DNA from: Halobacterium sp. CBA1126 | GTDB taxonomy: Archaea; Halobacteriota; Halobacteria; Halobacteriales; Halobacteriaceae | Assembly: GCF_009741975.1 (NCBI RefSeq) | Contig: NZ_WPCF01000017.1 | Location: 1 to 33,590, forward strand | Direction of reading: 5' to 3' | Length of the DNA stretch: 33,590 bases | In this document: in pieces, positions 24,364 to 31,730 of the stretch | Position numbering within the stretch: the first letter of the stretch is position 1 | Layout: every line of letters starts with the position of its first letter | Program-made: the position numbers and the translations under genes | Notes under the pieces: generated by a model | The model's input: the letters and a program-made list of their open reading frames with translations, nothing else | Told to the model about the DNA's origin: nothing | Database searches by the model: none

Positions 24364-25857
24364 TCAGTTGTCGAAGCGCGCCTGCACGAACGGCGTGACG
24401 TTCTCGATGTCGCTGAGCCGGGAGTCGGCCTCGAGGACGGCCTCGGTCTCCTCGACGGGGACCGAGAGGGAGATCTCCTTCGTGCGGCCGTACCGGCCCT
24501 TCGAGACGACGACCGCGTTCACGATGCCGAGCATGTCGAGCTCGCTGATGAGGTCGGTGACGCGGCGCTGCGTGAGCACGTCCGCGTCCAGCTCGTCGCA
24601 GAGCGTCTTGTAGATGTTGTACACCTCGCCCGTGTTCACGTTGTGGACGCCGTTGTCCTCCAGCAGGAGGATGGCGTACAGGACGAGCTTGCTCTGGGTG
24701 GGGAGCGTACGGACGACTTCGACCACGCGGTCGAGTTCGATCTTGTCCTGCGCGCGCCGGACGTTCTCCTCGGTGACCGAGTCGGACTGGTCGCGCTCGG
24801 CGAGCTCGCCCGCGGTCCGCAGGAGGTCGAGCGCGCGCCGCGCGTCGCCGTGCTCCTGGGCGGCGAACGCCGCGCACAGCGGGATGACGTCCTCGGAGAG
24901 CGCGTCCTCCTTGAACGCCACCTCCGAGCGGTGCTGGAGGATGTCCCGGAGCTGGTTGGCGTCGTACGGCGGGAAGACGATCTCCTCCTCGCCGAGGCTG
25001 GACTTGACGCGGGGGTCGAGGAAGTCGGTGAACTTCAGGTCGTTGCTGATGCCAATAATGGAGACCCGGGAGTTCTCCAGCTCGGAGTTCATCCGCGAGA
25101 GGTTGTAGAGGGTGTCGTCGCCGGACTTCTCGACGAGCTTGTCGATCTCGTCGAGCATGATGACGGCGACGCGCTCGACGTAGTCGACGGCCTCGAAGAA
25201 GCGGGCGTACACGCGGTCGGTCGGCCACCCCGTCATCGGGACGTCGTCCATCTCGGCCTTCTCCTCGCGGAGCGCTTCGATGCGCTCGTCGACGGCCTCC
25301 GGGGAGTCGAAGTCGAGGTGGTCGTCGTTGTCCTCGTCGGCTTCGAGGACGCTCGGGTCGTCCTCGGCGGCCTCCCGGAGCCCCTGCAGTTCCTCGATGC
25401 GCTCGTCGACGAACTCGCGGTTCTGCTCGATGAACGTGTTCGCGAGCTGCGCGAGCACGCGGTACTGGGTGTCCGTGACCTCGCAGTTGATGTACTCGAC
25501 CTCGCAGGGGACGTCGTACTTCTGGGAGGTCTTCTCGAGTTCCTGGCTGACGAACTTCGCGCTCGCGGTCTTCCCCGTGCCGGTCTTCCCGTAGATGAGG
25601 ATGTTCGACGGCGTCTCGCCGCGGAGCGCCGCGACGAGGATGGTCGCCATGTTGTTGATCTGGTCCTTCCGGTGGGGGAGCTCGTGCGGCGTGTACGACG
25701 GCCGCAGCACCTCCTTGTTCTCGAAGATGGGTTCGCCGCTGAGGAGGTCGTCGAACAGCCCCTCGTCGCCGTCCTCGTCTTCGAGGACGTCGTCGAGGTC
25801 CACCTCGAAGTCCCGGTCGGCGGTTCGTCGGCCGTCCGTCGTCGGTTCGTCTGACAT
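24364..25857 (-). CDS. orc1: Orc1/Cdc6 replication initiator, oriC1 type
   Basis: AAA+ initiator that binds origin recognition boxes and loads the MCM helicase. The 497-residue protein begins with an acidic tail, then DDLLSGEPIFENKEVLRPSY and ELPHRKDQINNM, the N-terminal motifs of Orc1 proteins linked to the main haloarchaeal origin. Walker A is YGKTGTGKTASA near residue 96, Walker B is VIMLDEIDKL, and sensor 1 is IGISNDL. A charged insertion of about 60 residues (roughly 150-215) is typical of this haloarchaeal group. The winged helix at the C-terminus contains LTQRRVTDLISELDMLGI, and the protein ends FVQARFDN. The gene points away from the putative origin, and an ORB-like site lies 10-31 bases upstream of its ATG. 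Confidence 0.96.
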   Translation of the reverse strand: MSDEPTTDGRRTADRDFEVDLDDVLEDEDGDEGLFDDLLSGEPIFENKEVLRPSYTPHELPHRKDQINNMATILVAALRGETPSNILIYGKTGTGKTASAKFVSQELEKTSQKYDVPCEVEYINCEVTDTQYRVLAQLANTFIEQNREFVDERIEELQGLREAAEDDPSVLEADEDNDDHLDFDSPEAVDERIEALREEKAEMDDVPMTGWPTDRVYARFFEAVDYVERVAVIMLDEIDKLVEKSGDDTLYNLSRMNSELENSRVSIIGISNDLKFTDFLDPRVKSSLGEEEIVFPPYDANQLRDILQHRSEVAFKEDALSEDVIPLCAAFAAQEHGDARRALDLLRTAGELAERDQSDSVTEENVRRAQDKIELDRVVEVVRTLPTQSKLVLYAILLLEDNGVHNVNTGEVYNIYKTLCDELDADVLTQRRVTDLISELDMLGIVNAVVVSKGRYGRTKEISLSVPVEETEAVLEADSRLSDIENVTPFVQARFDN

Positions 25858-25866
25858 GATTAGCGG

Positions 25867-25888
25867 TCCCCCTTCGTTTCGTGTGGAG
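25867..25888 (-). repeat. ORB-like element at the orc1 start
   Basis: On the minus strand it reads CTCCACACGAAACGAAGGGG plus GA. It lies 10-31 bases before the orc1 ATG, so bound Orc1 could block the gene. Confidence 0.7.
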
Positions 25889-25982
25889 AGCGCCGCGCGC
25901 CGAGAGGAAGCCACAGACCGACGCGAACGGGGCATTCGAGGCGGTTCAGTGACCGGGCGCTCCAGTTGATGCAGATGAACTA

Positions 25983-25997
25983 ATGGAAACGAGAGGG
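25983..25997 (+). repeat. Partial ORB-like element
   Basis: ATGGAAACGAGAGGG resembles the ORB core TGGAAACGGAGGGG with an altered G-tract. It adjoins the AT-rich string ACTAATAAG (25998-26006), a candidate orc1 promoter on the opposite strand. Confidence 0.4.
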
Positions 25998-26290
25998 ACT
26001 AATAAGTTTCGATGGAATCGGAGCGGCGGCGGAATCCGCCGATCTCGCGACCCGGTGAACGTGCCCGTGTGCGGTCGAGAACCGCAAGATAGCGGTGGGG
26101 TAGAGGATAAGGCCGGAGGTACGGTTCCGGAATCTCGCCTGTCGTCGAGCTGTGGAGACGGGAGAGCCTGCGGTCGGTCGCGCAATCGAGAACTGAAGGG
26201 GACCGTTTCGGGTGCGTGGCCGAGTCGCAGCCGGAGTGGGCGGGGATGGGTGAGTGAGTAGGTCGCGATTGGTCGCGGACTCAGTGGAGT

Positions 26291-26310
26291 TGCACTGGAA
26301 ACGGAGGGGT
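26291..26310 (+). repeat. ORB element (forward)
   Basis: TGCACTGGAAACGGAGGGGT matches the general archaeal ORB pattern (CCAxxGGAAACxxAGGGG). It faces the reverse ORB at 26331-26360, so the two G-rich ends point towards each other. Confidence 0.75.
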
Positions 26311-26323
26311 TGTGGTGCGGGAC

Positions 26324-26343
26324 GGGGTGGCGCCCCCCACCCC
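26324..26343. repeat. G-rich perfect inverted repeat between facing ORBs
   Basis: GGGGTGG (26324-26330) and CCACCCC (26337-26343) are perfect complements around CGCCCC. The right arm is part of the G-string of the reverse ORB. Confidence 0.5.
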
Positions 26344-26360
26344 TTCGTTTCGAGTGGAAC
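26331..26360 (-). repeat. Extended ORB with G-string (reverse), left flank of the unwinding region
   Basis: On the minus strand it starts GTTCCACTCGAAACGAAGGG and continues into GTGGGGGGCG. It agrees at about 27 of 30 positions (hand count) with the element at 26554-26583 in opposite orientation. The G-string matches the halophile-specific extension described for haloarchaeal ORBs. Confidence 0.85.
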
Positions 26361-26389
26361 GGCGAAAGACACCGGGGGAGGGGTCGCAG

Positions 26390-26503
26390 AAAGAGAGTTA
26401 TCTCTAGACGAGAGCAAAGACTAAGTGCTATGTCTAGAAACAGTATCCGTAAACCAAGCCGAACTGCATTTTGGATGGGTGGTATGGTCTAGGACTAGTG
26501 GCT
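26390..26503. other. Candidate duplex unwinding element
   Basis: About 44% GC by hand count over 26393-26500, against clearly GC-rich flanks. It contains TCTAGAC (26403-26409) and its inverted copy GTCTAGA (26432-26438) and two more CTAG tetramers (26489-26492 and 26495-26498). It lies between the two inverted extended ORBs. Confidence 0.65.
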
Positions 26504-26553
26504 TCCCCGGCCGTAACCGCTCGTCTCGTGCCGCCCGGGGTCGGTCTCCTCCC

Positions 26554-26583
26554 GTTTCCACTCGAAACGATGGGGTGGGGGCC
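26554..26583 (+). repeat. Extended ORB with G-string (forward), right flank of the unwinding region
   Basis: It starts GTTTCCACTCGAAACGATGG and continues into GGTGGGGGCC. It is the inverted partner of 26331-26360. It differs from that element mainly by T for A before the G-tract. Confidence 0.85.
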
Positions 26584-26844
26584 ACTCGGCTTATCCTCGG
26601 CACTCACTCACACACCTCCCGTCGCCCTTCCCGCCGCCCGTCTCGCGCCCGTTCAATCCTACTGGCTCTATCCCGCTCGTTCCGTCCTCGACGTCCCGAC
26701 TGGCGCGATCGCGAGCTGTCTACAGACGCTCTCGCGGAGCGCCACGTCTGACGTAAGTTTAAGTCCGCTCGCCGGCTCTCACCTATCAACCGTCCGCATC
26801 CTGCGTCAAGCATACAAGGCGCGGGGTGCGTATGGAGGCCAAGG

Positions 26845-27489
26845 ATGGGACTGTTCGCAGAACTCAGAGACAGCATCTCGCGGGTGTCGGCGAGCCTGTT
26901 TGCCGACGACTCGGAACCGAAACGAATCGGGATTTACGGCCCGCCGAACGCCGGGAAGACCACGCTCGCGAACCGCATCGCTCGCGACTGGACCGGGGAC
27001 GCGGTCGGCCCGGAGAGCCACATCCCGCACGAGACGCGCCGCGCGCGCCGGAAGGAGAACGTCGAGATCAAACGCGACGGGAAGACCGTCAACATCGACA
27101 TCGTCGACACGCCCGGCGTGACGACGAAGGTCGACTACTCGGAGTTCCTCGAGCACGACATGGAGAAAGACGAGGCCGTGCGCCGCTCCCGCGAGGCCAC
27201 CGAGGGCGTCGCGGAGGCGATGCACTGGCTGCGCGAGGACGTCGACGGCGTCATCTACGTGCTGGACTCCACCGAGGACCCGTTCACGCAGGTGAACACG
27301 ATGCTCATCGGCATCATCGAGAGCCGGGACCTCCCCGTGCTCATCCTCGCGAACAAGACCGACCTCGAGGGCGCGAACATCCAACGCGTCTCGAACGCCT
27401 TCCCCCAGCACGAGACGATTCCGCTCTCCGCCCTGGAGGGCGAGAACATGGACGAGGTCTACGAGAAGATCGCGGAGTACTTCGGGTGA
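26845..27489 (+). CDS. oapA: Era-like small GTPase OapA/ArvA
   Basis: A 214-residue Ras-like GTPase with G1 YGPPNAGKTTLAN near residue 33, a Thr in the G2 region, G3 DIVDTPGV near 88-95, and G4 LANKTDLEG near 167. There is no C-terminal KH domain, so it is not Era itself. Gene order (orc1, origin, then this gene and two partners) identifies the origin-associated protein OapA, also called ArvA. Published work in haloarchaea links this small GTPase to extracellular vesicle formation. A CATACAAG string about 31 nt upstream and GTTTAAGT at 26757-26764 are promoter candidates. It is followed after six bases by oapB. Confidence 0.92.
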   Translation: MGLFAELRDSISRVSASLFADDSEPKRIGIYGPPNAGKTTLANRIARDWTGDAVGPESHIPHETRRARRKENVEIKRDGKTVNIDIVDTPGVTTKVDYSEFLEHDMEKDEAVRRSREATEGVAEAMHWLREDVDGVIYVLDSTEDPFTQVNTMLIGIIESRDLPVLILANKTDLEGANIQRVSNAFPQHETIPLSALEGENMDEVYEKIAEYFG

Positions 27490-27495
27490 CCCACG

Positions 27496-27888
27496 ATGCC
27501 TGAAACCACGAGCGACGACGGACCCGGTGACGGCGTCCAGATCGACCTCATCAGCGCCGAGCGGATGTCCGGGAAGACGTCCATGGAGAAGATCCGGATG
27601 ATTCTCGACGGCGTCCGCGACGGCAAGATCGTCGTCCTCGAGTCCGGGCTGACGCCCGACGAGGAGTCGAAGCTCATCGAGGTGACGATGAGCGAGATCA
27701 ACCCGGACGGCTTCTCCGGCATCGAGATCGAGAGCTTCCCGCAGTCCGAGGCCAACGACACCGGCTTGCTCGGCCGCCTGATGGGCAAGCAGTCGACGTC
27801 GAAGCTCACGGTCGTCGGACCGGCGAACCAGATCCAGTCCCTCCACAAGGACGAGACGCTCATCAGCGCGCTCGTGTCCCGCAAGTAA
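27496..27888 (+). CDS. oapB: OapB/ArvB family protein
   Basis: A 130-residue protein that lies between the GTPase and zinc-ribbon genes in the conserved oapABC set. It has a compact conserved sequence with IDLISAERMSGKTSMEKIR, GKIVVLESGLTPDEESKLIE and a C-terminal KLTVVGPANQIQSLHKDETL. Reading GMSGKT as a P-loop would be wrong: the surrounding strand and glycine pattern is missing. The biochemical role is unknown; in vesicle work it is a partner of ArvA. The stop overlaps the oapC start (TAATG). Confidence 0.9.
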   Translation: MPETTSDDGPGDGVQIDLISAERMSGKTSMEKIRMILDGVRDGKIVVLESGLTPDEESKLIEVTMSEINPDGFSGIEIESFPQSEANDTGLLGRLMGKQSTSKLTVVGPANQIQSLHKDETLISALVSRK

Positions 27889-28646
27889 TGCCCCACCAGT
27901 GTACGAACTGCGGGCACGTCTTCGCGGACGGCTCCAAGGAGATGCTGTCGGGGTGTCCGGACTGCGGCGGGAACAAGTTCCAGTACCACCCCGGGGACGT
28001 CGACGAGGCGCCCGCGGACCCGCCCGCCGACGCCGACGCGGAGCCGCCGGAGCCGCCCGAGCAGGAGGGGAGCTCGGTCGCGGGCGCGGTCGGCCGCGCC
28101 GCGAACAAGGTCCGGGACGCCGTGACCAGCGACCCCGACCCCGCAGCGCGTACGACTGGCGACGACGCCGGTGCGACTGACGCCGCGGACGCGTCGAGCG
28201 CCGACGCGGAGACCGACCCCGTTGCACCCGAAACGGAGGCGTCCGCGTTCGCCGACGAACCCGACGCGGACAGTTCCAGCGCACCCGAAACGGGGGGCGA
28301 GGGCGACGAGCCGGCGGAGGCCATCGACGCGAACACGGCGACCGGCGACGAGGACGCCGCGCAGGCCGACGCCCGCAGCTCCGTCGTCGACACGGACTCC
28401 CTGCCGGACGCGCCCTCCGAGGGCCGCGTCGTCAAGGAGCCCGACGACCCCGACGACCGCCCCGACATCGAGGCGCTCCGCCAGGAGCTCAACGACCAGT
28501 TCGAGTCCATCCGCATCGTCGCGCCCGGCCAGTACGAGCTCAACCTCATGGAGCTGTACGACCGCCAGGAGTACATCATCGCGCTCCAGGAGGACGGCCA
28601 GTACGTCATCGAAGTGCCGGACGCGTGGGAGACCGACGACGAGTAG
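27888..28646 (+). CDS. oapC: OapC/ArvC family zinc-ribbon protein
   Basis: A 252-residue protein with an N-terminal zinc ribbon (CTNCG and CPDCG, residues 5-27), a very long acidic low-complexity middle (about 40-175), and a conserved C-terminal domain containing IEALRQELNDQFESIRIVAPGQYELNL and ending EVPDAWETDDE. Third gene of the oap/arv operon, translationally coupled to oapB. The disordered middle suggests a tether between the metal-binding head and the C-terminal domain. Two ORB-like strings lie within the part coding for the middle (28224-28241 and 28281-28300). Confidence 0.9.
   Translation: MPHQCTNCGHVFADGSKEMLSGCPDCGGNKFQYHPGDVDEAPADPPADADAEPPEPPEQEGSSVAGAVGRAANKVRDAVTSDPDPAARTTGDDAGATDAADASSADAETDPVAPETEASAFADEPDADSSSAPETGGEGDEPAEAIDANTATGDEDAAQADARSSVVDTDSLPDAPSEGRVVKEPDDPDDRPDIEALRQELNDQFESIRIVAPGQYELNLMELYDRQEYIIALQEDGQYVIEVPDAWETDDE
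28224..28300 (+). repeat. Two ORB-like strings within oapC
   Basis: GCACCCGAAACGGAGGCG (28224-28241) and GCACCCGAAACGGGGGGCGA (28281-28300) share 13 identical leading bases, both encoding APET in frame. The pairing of DNA and peptide repeat means a coding explanation is equally possible. Confidence 0.35.
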
Positions 28647-30273: not shown

Positions 30274-30357
30274 ATGAGCACTGCAACGAAGTACGTCGCC
30301 ACGACCGTCGGCCTCGCGGCCGTCCTGTCGCTGATCATCGTCGTCAACGTCGCGTAA
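30274..30357 (+). CDS. 27-residue single-helix membrane microprotein
   Basis: A 28-codon frame (27 residues) encoding a short polar head (STATKY) and one hydrophobic stretch, VGLAAVLSLIIVVNV, of about 16-18 residues. It is likely inserted in the membrane. I know no family. Support comes from three things seen in the sequence: a TATA-like box at the exact leaderless distance, a stop that overlaps the next ATG (TAATG), and a membrane-like composition. It may be a functional microprotein or a leader whose translation couples to the downstream gene. Confidence 0.65.
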   Translation: MSTATKYVATTVGLAAVLSLIIVVNVA

Positions 30358-31148
30358 TGTTCTCGGAGCGCGACCTCGCGGGCGACCTCGCGGCCGTCCG
30401 CGAGGCGTACGCGCCTGACGCACTCGTCCTCGACTGCGAGCGGGACTTCCAGACGCTGCCCCCGGAGCACCGCGACGACCTCGCGCTGCTCACCGAGTCG
30501 CTGTCGCCCGCCGCGTACGACGACGACTGGCTCCCCGCGGACGCCCCCGAGATTCTCTCCCGGCTCGCGTCCACGGACCTCGTCGTCGGCACGCCCGGCG
30601 ACGGCGCCGTCGCGTGGACGACCCAGACGGAGCCGCCGGTCGTCTTCGTGAAGGCCCGCATCGAGGGGACGCCCGAGGCGTTCGCGGACTTCCTCGTCGC
30701 GGAGGCGCTCGTCGAGGCCGGCCTCGACCTCCCCGAGCAGTTCCTCGGCTTCTTCGAGGCCGACTACCGCGCGTTCGACGCCGCCGTCGACGCCGACCCG
30801 ACCTCCGTCTACCAGCTCGCGTCCGCGTGCTGCGACGCCTACCGCGGCCTCCACACCCGCGAGGAGTTCGCGTCGTGGGCCGACGACTACCCGGACCTCC
30901 ACGAGGCGTGGGCGGACGCCGGCGAGCGCGTCAGCGGCCGCGTCGACGGCCTCCCGCGGGAAATCGCGCGCGGCGAGACGTCGTTCGCGGACGCCGCCGA
31001 ACTCGCGTGCAGCGCCGTCAAACACGACGTCGACCTGCCCGCGCCGTTCGCCGCGCTGGACACCCTCGCCTACCGCCGGCACGGCGCCAGCTACGCGGTC
31101 AAGTGGGCGGAGAAAGTCTTCGACGCCGAGTCGGCCGACTCCTCGTAG
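30357..31148 (+). CDS. Uncharacterised haloarchaeal protein, probably DUF7089
   Basis: A 263-residue, acidic, mostly helical soluble protein. It contains APDALVLDCERDFQTLPPEH near the start, LVVGTPGDGAVAWTTQTEPP in the middle, and SACCDAYRGLHTREEFASW with two adjacent cysteines. No catalytic motif is recognised. The DUF7089 name is my best recollection of the family seen beside the RecA-like gene in haloarchaea and is tentative. Its ATG overlaps the microprotein stop, so expression depends on that upstream frame. It converges with the next gene with three bases between the stops. Confidence 0.7.
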   Translation: MFSERDLAGDLAAVREAYAPDALVLDCERDFQTLPPEHRDDLALLTESLSPAAYDDDWLPADAPEILSRLASTDLVVGTPGDGAVAWTTQTEPPVVFVKARIEGTPEAFADFLVAEALVEAGLDLPEQFLGFFEADYRAFDAAVDADPTSVYQLASACCDAYRGLHTREEFASWADDYPDLHEAWADAGERVSGRVDGLPREIARGETSFADAAELACSAVKHDVDLPAPFAALDTLAYRRHGASYAVKWAEKVFDAESADSS

Positions 31149-31151
31149 CTC

Positions 31152-31730
31152 TCAGTACTCGGCGACGACGTTGTCGTCCTCGTCGAGCTCGACGACCACG
31201 TCGCTCTCGCCGCGGAACGCGTCGATGACGTCGGCGTCGTGGACCTCTCGGGAGACGTGGACGAGCGCGACCGCGTCGTGTTCCGCGAGGAGGTCGCCGA
31301 GGCGGCCGAGCGCGTCGAGCGCGCGGTCGTCGTCGGCGTAGTACGCGAGCTCGGTCAGCGAGTCGAAGCTGATGCGGCGCTTCCCGGGATTGTCCGTGAG
31401 GAACTGCTCGACGGCCGCGAGGATGCCGTCGACGTCGTCGGGCGCGGAGACGTAGTGGATGTGGCTCGCGCCCCGCCGCGAGTAACCGCGGTCGACCGAG
31501 AGAGTGTCCAGAATCTCGGCGCTGTCCTCGTCGACGTCGTAGTACTCCAGTTTCTGGGTGACCTCGCGGGCGGTCGTGCGCGTGGAGACGACGAGGAAGT
31601 GGTCGGTGTCGGTCTTCAGGAAGTCGGTGTCGATGCGGTCGGTCTCGCCGGTGCTCGGGTGGAGCAGCAGTACGACGGTGCCGCCCGGGACGGAGTCGGG
31701 CGCTCCGTCGATGGCGAGGTCGTAGTCCAT
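31152..31730 (-). CDS. RecA/KaiC-like protein with degenerate P-loop, probably DUF7090
   Basis: A 192-residue protein with the strand order of a RecA-superfamily ATPase core. VPGGTVVLLLHPSTGETDRID is where Walker A would be, but it lacks the Lys of GK[ST]. FLVVSTRTTAREV forms the second strand, and RRISFDSLTELAYY takes the Walker-B place. VALVHVSREVHD follows as a late core strand. Nucleotide binding is therefore uncertain. Haloarchaea have several such reduced KaiC-like proteins of unknown role. It starts with ATG at 31730; the gap to the next gene is 58 bp. Confidence 0.7.
   Translation of the reverse strand: MDYDLAIDGAPDSVPGGTVVLLLHPSTGETDRIDTDFLKTDTDHFLVVSTRTTAREVTQKLEYYDVDEDSAEILDTLSVDRGYSRRGASHIHYVSAPDDVDGILAAVEQFLTDNPGKRRISFDSLTELAYYADDDRALDALGRLGDLLAEHDAVALVHVSREVHDADVIDAFRGESDVVVELDEDDNVVAEY

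What the first reader, a model, noticed from the sequence alone, without database searches (positions are those of the whole stretch)
26291..26583. Inverted extended ORBs around an AT-rich element: a haloarchaeal replication origin core
Two 30-bp elements, nearly identical and in opposite orientation, with GGGGTGGGGG-type G-strings, flank about 190 bp whose centre is about 44% GC in a very GC-rich genome. It lies directly between orc1 and oapA. This is the documented layout of haloarchaeal oriC1. I can assign the ORBs and the unwinding element at base level, while its activity is inferred.
Basis: partly seen in the sequence, partly recalled or inferred. Interest (0 to 1): 0.8.

Follow-up and report, generated by a model that had tools for sequence, protein, structure and literature searches.

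The report
Haloarchaeal replication origin with hidden module
This is the main chromosomal replication origin of a salt-loving Halobacterium, an ordinary and well-known kind of origin, but its AT-rich middle, usually treated as mere melting DNA, holds a short two-part sequence that most haloarchaea examined keep at nearly the same place, so a second factor probably acts there.

Summary
In detail: two near-identical inverted origin recognition boxes (ORBs; 25/26 nt) flank a 196-nt core holding the lowest-GC 100 nt of the window, between orc1 and oapA. Anatomy and synteny are those of haloarchaeal oriC1, as published for Halobacterium NRC-1. The object is a known kind; activity is inferred. Most important, the core carries a bipartite module, GGAAG-n-TTTAT - 13 nt - AAACMRWAYCCGYA. 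In 90 of 96 training cores and 14 of 19 held-out cores half B scores above the 99% shuffle null at 62-81 nt from one ORB (null 0.0005, and 0 of 380). It has one exact match in its genome and is absent from the nearest ORB pair in 13 testable orc1 loci outside the order. I found no report of it, but key papers and supplements were unavailable. Best reading: site of an origin-activation factor, analogous to Sulfolobus ucm; rival: embedded promoter.

The parts
26334..26359 (-). ORB-L, extended haloarchaeal ORB (TTCCACTCGAAACGAAGGGGTGGGGG), G-string pointing outward
26556..26581 (+). ORB-R, inverted partner (TTCCACTCGAAACGATGGGGTGGGGG), G-string pointing outward
26360..26555 (.). 196-nt core (presumed duplex unwinding element); contains the lowest-GC 100 nt of the window
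26414..26425 (+). half A of the conserved bipartite core module (GCAAAGACTAAG; family consensus GGAAGnTTTAT; the TA at 26422-26423 is kept in 102 of 107 cores)
26438..26455 (+). half B of the module (AAACAGTATCCGTAAACC; family consensus AAACMRWAYCCGYACTAG), 78 nt inside ORB-L
   Evidence: the only exact pattern match in its genome
26404..26407 (.). CTAG site 1 of 4 in the core
26434..26437 (.). CTAG site 2, directly before half B
26489..26498 (.). CTAG sites 3 and 4 as the pair CTAGGACTAG; GTCTAG-nn-CTAG is present in all 12 Halobacterium origins aligned
26374..26383 (+). [quoted passage not shown] the right half (about 26545-26553, TCTCCTCCC) is degenerate
   Evidence: sequence; enhancer role from PMC3936714 passages
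26290..26315 (+). ORB-0, weaker third ORB; its G-string faces that of ORB-L (offset 50 nt)
   Evidence: a 21/26 inverted match to ORB-L
25869..25888 (-). orc1-proximal ORB (CTCCACACGAAACGAAGGGG), 11 nt upstream of the orc1 start codon
25998..26011 (-). orc1 promoter-like block (CGAAACTTATTAGT), identical in 11 of 12 Halobacterium origins
   Evidence: the promoter reading is inference
24364..25857 (-). orc1 (Orc1/Cdc6 initiator, 497 aa)
26845..27489 (+). oapA / arvA small GTPase
   Evidence: function from PMC10927574 passages
27496..27888 (+). oapB (Pfam PF09846)
27888..28646 (+). oapC (Pfam PF09845)

Best explanation
This is oriC1, the conserved Orc1-dependent chromosomal origin, of a Halobacterium species. 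Orc1 made from the adjacent gene binds ORB-L and ORB-R through their TTCCA-nnn-GAAAC cores and extended G-strings (family knowledge) and recruits MCM to the core. Orc1 on the weaker ORB-0 should pack head-to-head against Orc1 on ORB-L, and Orc1 on the orc1-proximal ORB should repress its own gene (both inferred). The core is not passive: at 62-81 nt from one ORB it carries a two-part site (GGAAG-n-TTTAT and AAACMRWAYCCGYA), which I read as the site of a second, sequence-specific factor that helps open the DNA or release MCM, working like the Sulfolobus ucm/UBP pair but not shown to be related to it (inferred; I put this part at about 0.5). CTAG sites around the module offer a place for methylation to mark newly replicated origins (inferred, about 0.3). 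Shown: the anatomy, its conservation, spacing and genome uniqueness. Not shown: any binding, methylation or activity. The confidence given is for the oriC1 identification with the module as a real conserved element; the sub-claims carry their own figures.
For: Inverted ORBs and AT minimum. Orc1 equivalog and oap synteny. Same arrangement in 85 of 102 upstream regions, window included; 8 duplicates and L112 (76 nt) had been dropped before, and the 17 without a pair include truncated contigs and Halorubrum with orc1 moved away. Module: found in training cores; held-out test, 14 of 19 cores above the 99% null and all 14 at 62-72 nt from one ORB; best hit at 62-81 nt in 17 of 19 against 12.1% of dinucleotide-shuffled cores. 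No held-out core is identical to, or shares over half its 12-mers with, a training core. Half A was not used for selection, yet TA at -16/-15 is kept in 90 of 93 training and 12 of 14 held-out cores with half B. One exact genome match. Not found in eight loci around other orc1/cdc6 hits of the same genome.
Against: No functional data. The genome is a fragmented assembly (209 contigs, 87% complete), so no whole-chromosome skew test was made; local skew flips weakly (+0.037 left, -0.019 right). 5 of 19 held-out cores fell below the module threshold, 1 of them at the right place; 6 of 96 training cores also miss the joint criterion. The cores are related by descent, so counts are not independent events. 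Half A resembles a haloarchaeal BRE/TATA, so part of the conservation could be transcriptional. This genome has several orc1/cdc6 genes, so this may not be the only origin.
Confidence: 0.85

Rival explanations
1. The bipartite module is an embedded promoter. GGAAG-n-TTTAT is BRE plus TATA bound by TFB and TBP, and the CCGYA end of half B is the start-site region; transcription from inside the origin helps to open it, makes a primer, or makes a regulatory RNA.
For: Half A fits the haloarchaeal promoter elements CGAAA (BRE) and TTWT (TATA) quoted in PMC4983044 (passages); the distance from TATA to CCGYA is about that usual from TATA to start site (recalled). 91 of 99 modules point away from orc1.
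Against: Half B (A2 and C9 in all 107 cores, though these were selected by the matrix) is kept more strictly than start regions usually are (recalled). Direction follows the nearby ORB: about 7 origins carry it flipped towards orc1 with the ORB distance kept. orc1 has its own promoter-like block elsewhere. In most Halobacterium origins half A reads ACTAAG, a poor TATA.
Confidence: 0.3
2. The CTAG cluster is a methylation switch like Dam/SeqA at E. coli oriC: the orphan CTAG methylase marks old origins, and hemimethylated CTAG in the core delays re-firing. (It can hold beside the other readings.)
For: 241 CTAG in 18,444 nt of 85 cores against 224 in 643,273 nt of flanks. In methylase-bearing genomes 237 against 75.7 expected from dinucleotide shuffles. 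66 of 70 methylase-bearing and 2 of 15 methylase-lacking origins have a CTAG; with 11 origins added later, 67 of 73 and 4 of 23. The own-genome methylase is 48.6% identical to that of plasmid pFZ1 beside an MjaI-family nuclease. Blow et al. 2016 report CTAG clusters near orc1/cdc6 correlating with the methylase (PMC4752239 passages).
Against: With the tree taken into account only 5 independent pairs exist: on average 1.9 agree, 0.1 disagree, 2.9 do not differ; not significant. Within Halorubrum, 3 of the 4 methylase-bearing origins have none. Further exceptions: L049, L072 and L080 have the methylase but no CTAG; L046 (an assembled metagenome) and L062 lack it but have 3 and 1; so do L138 and L139 with 2 and 1. 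Hfx. volcanii showed raised CTAG density only at oriC2, and its RM-deletion strain had no growth defect (PMC5867850 passages).
Confidence: 0.3
3. The region is only the shared regulatory region of orc1 and oapA, or a dormant origin; ORBs serve orc1 autoregulation.
For: An ORB lies 11 nt from the orc1 start; a site of at least 12 bits lies between orc1 and ORB-L, within 350 nt of orc1, in 55 of 71 loci, though within 60 nt of the aligned start in only 13. Some haloarchaeal orc-linked origins appear dormant (PMC3528665 passages).
Against: oriC1 is conserved in all haloarchaeal genomes analysed in PMC4010727; it gives autonomous replication in NRC-1 (PMC1447603), is the most active origin of Hfx. 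volcanii (PMC7776575) and one of two active main-chromosome origins of Har. hispanica (PMC3936714); all passages only. ORB pair, G-strings and core are intact here.
Confidence: 0.07

Closest known systems
Halobacterium sp. NRC-1 oriC1 (orc7-dependent)
   Same: 33-bp near-perfect inverted repeat round 189 bp at 56% GC upstream of orc7 (PMC1447603 passages); here 25/26-nt repeats round 196 nt at 56% GC in the same genus. The H. salinarum DSM 3754 origin (L025) carries the module and the CTAG pair.
   Different: Only details: ORB-0 sits at offset 50 here and 48 in L025; the core has 4 CTAG here and 5 in L025. The NRC-1 sequence itself was not compared.
Haloarcula hispanica oriC1 (oriC1-cdc6A)
   Same: Inverted ORBs with extended G-strings shown essential; internal G-rich inverted repeat shown to be an enhancer (PMC3936714 passages).
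   Different: Here only the left G-rich half is intact, as reported for NRC-1. The passages read describe no element corresponding to the module.
Sulfolobus oriC1 ucm with UBP
   Same: A short conserved element inside the AT-rich region between two inverted ORBs; there it is essential and bound by UBP, which contacts MCM (PMC12141716 passages).
   Different: The 11-nt ucm is not present: best match 7 of 11 in the window core, the commonest value in shuffles. UBP is reported only from Desulfurococcales and Sulfolobales and binds over 300 sites, while the module has one exact match here.
CTAG clusters at haloarchaeal origins (Blow et al. 2016, PMC4752239)
   Same: CTAG density near orc1/cdc6 in methylase-bearing haloarchaea.
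   Different: Here resolved to the inter-ORB core at base level, with peaks 30-50 nt from ORB-L and in the third quarter of the core, and a tree-aware test that comes out inconclusive.

Membership tests
haloarchaeal oriC1 | adjacent orc1/cdc6 of the oriC1 type | tested here: met
   NF001625 657.8 bits, cut-off 501
haloarchaeal oriC1 | inverted ORBs with extended halophile G-string | tested here: met
haloarchaeal oriC1 | AT-rich region between the ORBs | tested here: met
   lowest-GC 100 nt of the window
haloarchaeal oriC1 | synteny with oapA (gbp) and its operon | tested here: met
[quoted passage not shown]
   left half intact, right half degenerate; regex search in 85 cores: left 48, right 20, both 12
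haloarchaeal oriC1 | skew inflection at the origin | tested here: inconclusive
   weak local sign change only; the contig is 33.6 kb of a fragmented genome
haloarchaeal oriC1 | replication initiates here in vivo / ARS activity | not testable with these tools
   needs marker-frequency sequencing or a plasmid assay
Sulfolobus ucm | conserved element inside the DUE between inverted ORBs | tested here: met
Sulfolobus ucm | ucm sequence | tested here: not met
   11-nt ucm deduced from the oligonucleotides printed: best match in the window core 7 of 11; over 115 cores 12 reach 9 or more against 57 of 1,150 mononucleotide shuffles, a small excess that I do not read as membership
Sulfolobus ucm | bound by UBP | not tested
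   ubp was not searched for in this genome; the paper says it is confined to Desulfurococcales and Sulfolobales
Sulfolobus ucm | essential for origin activity | not testable with these tools
   needs mutagenesis
CTAG orphan methylase and origin clusters | methylase of the CTAG family in the genome | tested here: met
   L132 ORF, 48.6% over 94% to the pFZ1 enzyme; that the pFZ1 enzyme methylates CTAG is recalled
CTAG orphan methylase and origin clusters | CTAG cluster at the origin | tested here: met
   4 in the core, 2 in the other 33.4 kb
CTAG orphan methylase and origin clusters | cluster and methylase co-vary independently of ancestry | tested here: inconclusive
   5 independent pairs, not significant

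The most novel reading that the evidence does not exclude
Haloarchaeal oriC1 is built asymmetrically round a dedicated two-part site inside the unwinding element, set at 62-81 nt from one ORB and specific to oriC1. A so far unknown haloarchaeal factor (or TBP/TFB with transcription from within the origin) binds it to trigger opening or MCM release. It would be the euryarchaeal counterpart of the ucm/UBP step known from Sulfolobales and their relatives.
Probability: 0.4. Interest if true: 0.8.

Novelty: new variant of a known kind. Interest (0 to 1): 0.58.

Why it matters
The origin itself is a known kind. [quoted passage not shown] A conserved site, unique in its genome, at a set distance from an ORB across many haloarchaeal genera gives a concrete bait and mutational target in genetically tractable species (Haloferax volcanii, Haloarcula hispanica, Halobacterium salinarum).

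Tried and rejected
RNA family: no Rfam match over 25500-27300 at gathering threshold.

CTAG/methylase link as an independent result: strong raw association, but the added Halorubrum and Halobellus origins and the independent-pairs test do not support it beyond shared ancestry; also already in print. Not claimed.

ORB-0 at about 50 nt as a general oriC1 feature: rejected. At 12 bits it is in 19 of 85 loci, 18 of them among the 20 loci of the window's own family and 1 outside. The two family members without it are L105 (below 12 bits but at the same place) and L084.

orc1-proximal ORB as a general feature: an ORB on the orc1 side is common (55 of 71), but a position right at the orc1 start is not (13 of 71 within 60 nt of the aligned start). 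In one search the hit listed for L025 was ORB-L itself; one search excludes ORB-L and finds a separate site for L025.

Module in other archaea: 17 of the 30 orc1 loci kept lie outside the window's order (taken as non-haloarchaeal). 13 of these have an inverted ORB-like pair in range, and none has the module in the nearest pair. L220 and L223 have 15.1-bit hits elsewhere in the locus; that of L223 falls inside a wider, non-nearest pair.

Module as a general chromatin-protein site: not supported in this genome (1 exact match; 11 one-mismatch matches against 7 for the reversed control pattern).

Helical phasing of the ORB-module distance: the distances 62-81 nt look weakly two-peaked; not tested, not claimed.

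Full report
OBSERVATION. The two inverted elements are real: 26334-26359 (-) and 26556-26581 (+), 25 of 26 positions identical, 196 nt apart. Apart from shifted registers of the same pair, no inverted match of 26-mers within 500 nt in the 33.6-kb window exceeds 23/26. The core between them contains the lowest-GC 100 nt of the window, 43% against a mean of 70.6%. Neighbours are orc1 on the left (-) and oapA-oapB-oapC on the right (+).

WHAT IT IS. The contig belongs to a fragmented 2.73-Mb assembly (209 contigs, 87% complete) in the genus Halobacterium, judged from OapA, which is 100% identical to that of Halobacterium sp. KA-4. orc1 meets the NCBIfam equivalog NF001625. The layout equals the NRC-1 oriC1 as reviewed in PMC1447603 (passages read): 33-bp inverted repeat, 189 bp between, 56% GC. 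I collected upstream regions of oapA from named genomes (best 80 loci kept) and unnamed relatives (57 of 59 genomes with a match, 30 loci kept). Eight duplicates and L112 (76 nt upstream) were dropped; of the remaining 102 regions, the window included, 85 have an inverted ORB pair. The 17 without a pair include short contig ends and Halorubrum or Halobellus genomes where orc1 is not next to oapA. For 15 genomes, mostly such cases, I fetched the orc1 locus: 12 have a pair, one of them (L149) already counted; 3 do not. So 96 training cores in all.

EXTRA ORBs. ORB-0 (26290-26315) lies at an offset of 50 nt from ORB-L with G-strings facing; at 12 bits such a site occurs at 48-52 nt in 19 of 85 loci, 18 of them among the 20 of the window's own family. 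Between orc1 and ORB-L, within 350 nt of orc1, an ORB of at least 12 bits occurs in 55 of 71 loci, within 60 nt of the aligned start in 13 (which corrects one misassigned hit). In Halobacterium it sits 10-14 nt from the start codon in the eight examined, which suggests autoregulation (inference). The block CGAAACTTATTAGT before orc1, identical in 11 of 12 Halobacterium origins, resembles a promoter (inference).

G-RICH REPEAT. GGGGGAGGGG at 26374-26383 is the left half of the repeat that Wu et al. showed to be an enhancer in Haloarcula hispanica (PMC3936714, passages); the right half is degenerate; that paper reports a half repeat for NRC-1 too.

CTAG. CTAG occurs 4 times in the core and 2 times in the remaining 33.4 kb. 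Over 85 cores: 241 in 18,444 nt against 224 in 643,273 nt of flanks; 68 of 85 cores have at least one. In methylase-bearing genomes the enrichment is in the first three quarters of the core (15, 15 and 30 per kb), with 1.6 per kb in the last quarter, and mostly fades within 200-400 nt outside. There the count is 237 against 75.7 in dinucleotide shuffles; in the other genomes 4 against 7.9. The methylase (341 aa, contig 171) is 48.6% identical to the pFZ1 plasmid enzyme beside an MjaI-family nuclease; that these act on CTAG is recalled. Presence was scored (one locus, L043, not held). CTAG is present in 66 of 70 origins with and 2 of 15 without the methylase, or 67 of 73 and 4 of 23 after adding 11 origins. 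Against an independent link: three of four methylase-bearing Halorubrum origins have no CTAG, and only 5 tree-independent pairs exist, not significant (FastTree on 93 rows). Blow et al. 2016 had already reported the cluster and its correlation (PMC4752239, passages); Ouellette et al. argue against a role in Hfx. volcanii (PMC5867850, passages).

THE MODULE. Aligning 12 Halobacterium origins showed invariant blocks inside the core. A matrix seeded on AAC-A-nn-A-n-CC and refined over the 96 cores finds an 18-nt element in 89 of 96 above the 99% mononucleotide-shuffle null, or 91 of 96 above the 99% dinucleotide null, 90 of these at 62-81 nt from the ORB its AAAC end faces. Because the matrix was trained on these cores, I fetched 30 further stretches after noting the prediction, 60-85 nt (note; fetches). 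Twenty have an ORB pair, one is a duplicate, and of the 19 new cores 14 exceed the 99% null, all at 62-72 nt with the predicted orientation. The five misses are G057, G039, G030, G053 (9.0 bits, right place) and G049. The best hit lies at 62-81 nt in 17 of 19, against 12.1% of shuffled cores; above threshold and in place together, 0 of 380 shuffles. No new core is identical to, or shares over half its 12-mers with, a training core. Anchored on the element, a second conserved half appears upstream that was not used in the search: GGAAG-n-TTTAT, with TA at -16/-15 in 90 of 93 training and 12 of 14 held-out cores that have half B. It is seen in genera including Halobacterium, Haloarcula, Natronomonas, Halorubrum and Halorussus. 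Core length varies from 156 to 466 nt while the distance stays in that range. In 91 of 99 loci where orc1 is in the stretch it points away from orc1, in 8 towards it, of which L101 is doubtful; 9 more of the 108 loci do not show orc1. The flipped cases keep the distance to the ORB then nearest. In this genome the pattern has one exact match, and eight loci around other orc1/cdc6 hits lack it. Of 17 orc1 loci outside the order, 13 have an ORB-like pair in range and none of these has the module in the nearest pair.

MECHANISM. Shown: sequence, spacing, orientation, conservation and genome uniqueness. Established for the family: Orc1 binds ORBs by winged helix and AAA+ domain, the G-strings are essential (Har. 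hispanica), and MCM is recruited. Inferred: a second factor reads the module. In S. islandicus the DUE between the ORBs was largely insensitive to mutation except at ucm, which is bound by UBP, a protein that contacts MCM (PMC12141716, passages). The haloarchaeal module is in the same kind of place but the ucm sequence is not found, so I claim 'works like', not 'is'. The main rival is an embedded promoter, because half A resembles the haloarchaeal BRE and TATA quoted in PMC4983044 (passages).

NOVELTY. The origin is a known kind; the rating 'new variant' is for the module alone. Listings of eight literature searches and the passages read show no description of the module. Berquist and DasSarma 2003 and Coker et al. 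2009 were not held, and supplements, including the oriC1 alignment of PMC3936714, could not be opened. An earlier description is therefore possible.

Noticed in passing
window 26845-28646: The 'origin-associated' oapA-oapB-oapC operon is the archaeal vesiculating GTPase operon arvABC: an oapA deletion in Hfx. volcanii is reported unable to make RNA-associated vesicles (PMC10927574 passages). Why a vesicle operon stays beside oriC1 in so many haloarchaea is open.
   Followed up: partly
window 24367-25857: This Orc1 matches orthologues from outside the order in two pieces (about residues 32-142 and 205-494), so it carries a roughly 60-residue acidic insert inside the AAA+ part.
   Followed up: no
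L137, L138, L139, L141, L144, L145, L147: In these seven Halorubrum genomes oapA has no orc1 within 4 kb upstream, yet the ORB pair and module stay with orc1.
   Followed up: partly
L030, L077, L094: Halapricum and Halorhabdus have unusually long inter-ORB cores (466, 386 and 404 nt) with the module still at 77-80 nt from ORB-L.
   Followed up: no
Halorubrum cores, for example L047, L076, L139: Half B takes the form AACAGTACCCTCGACAA or close to it in the Halorubrum origins seen, which probably explains the TCGA excess in methylase-lacking cores.
   Followed up: partly
window 30357-31730: Two neighbouring genes belong to uncharacterised families DUF7089 and DUF7090.
   Followed up: no
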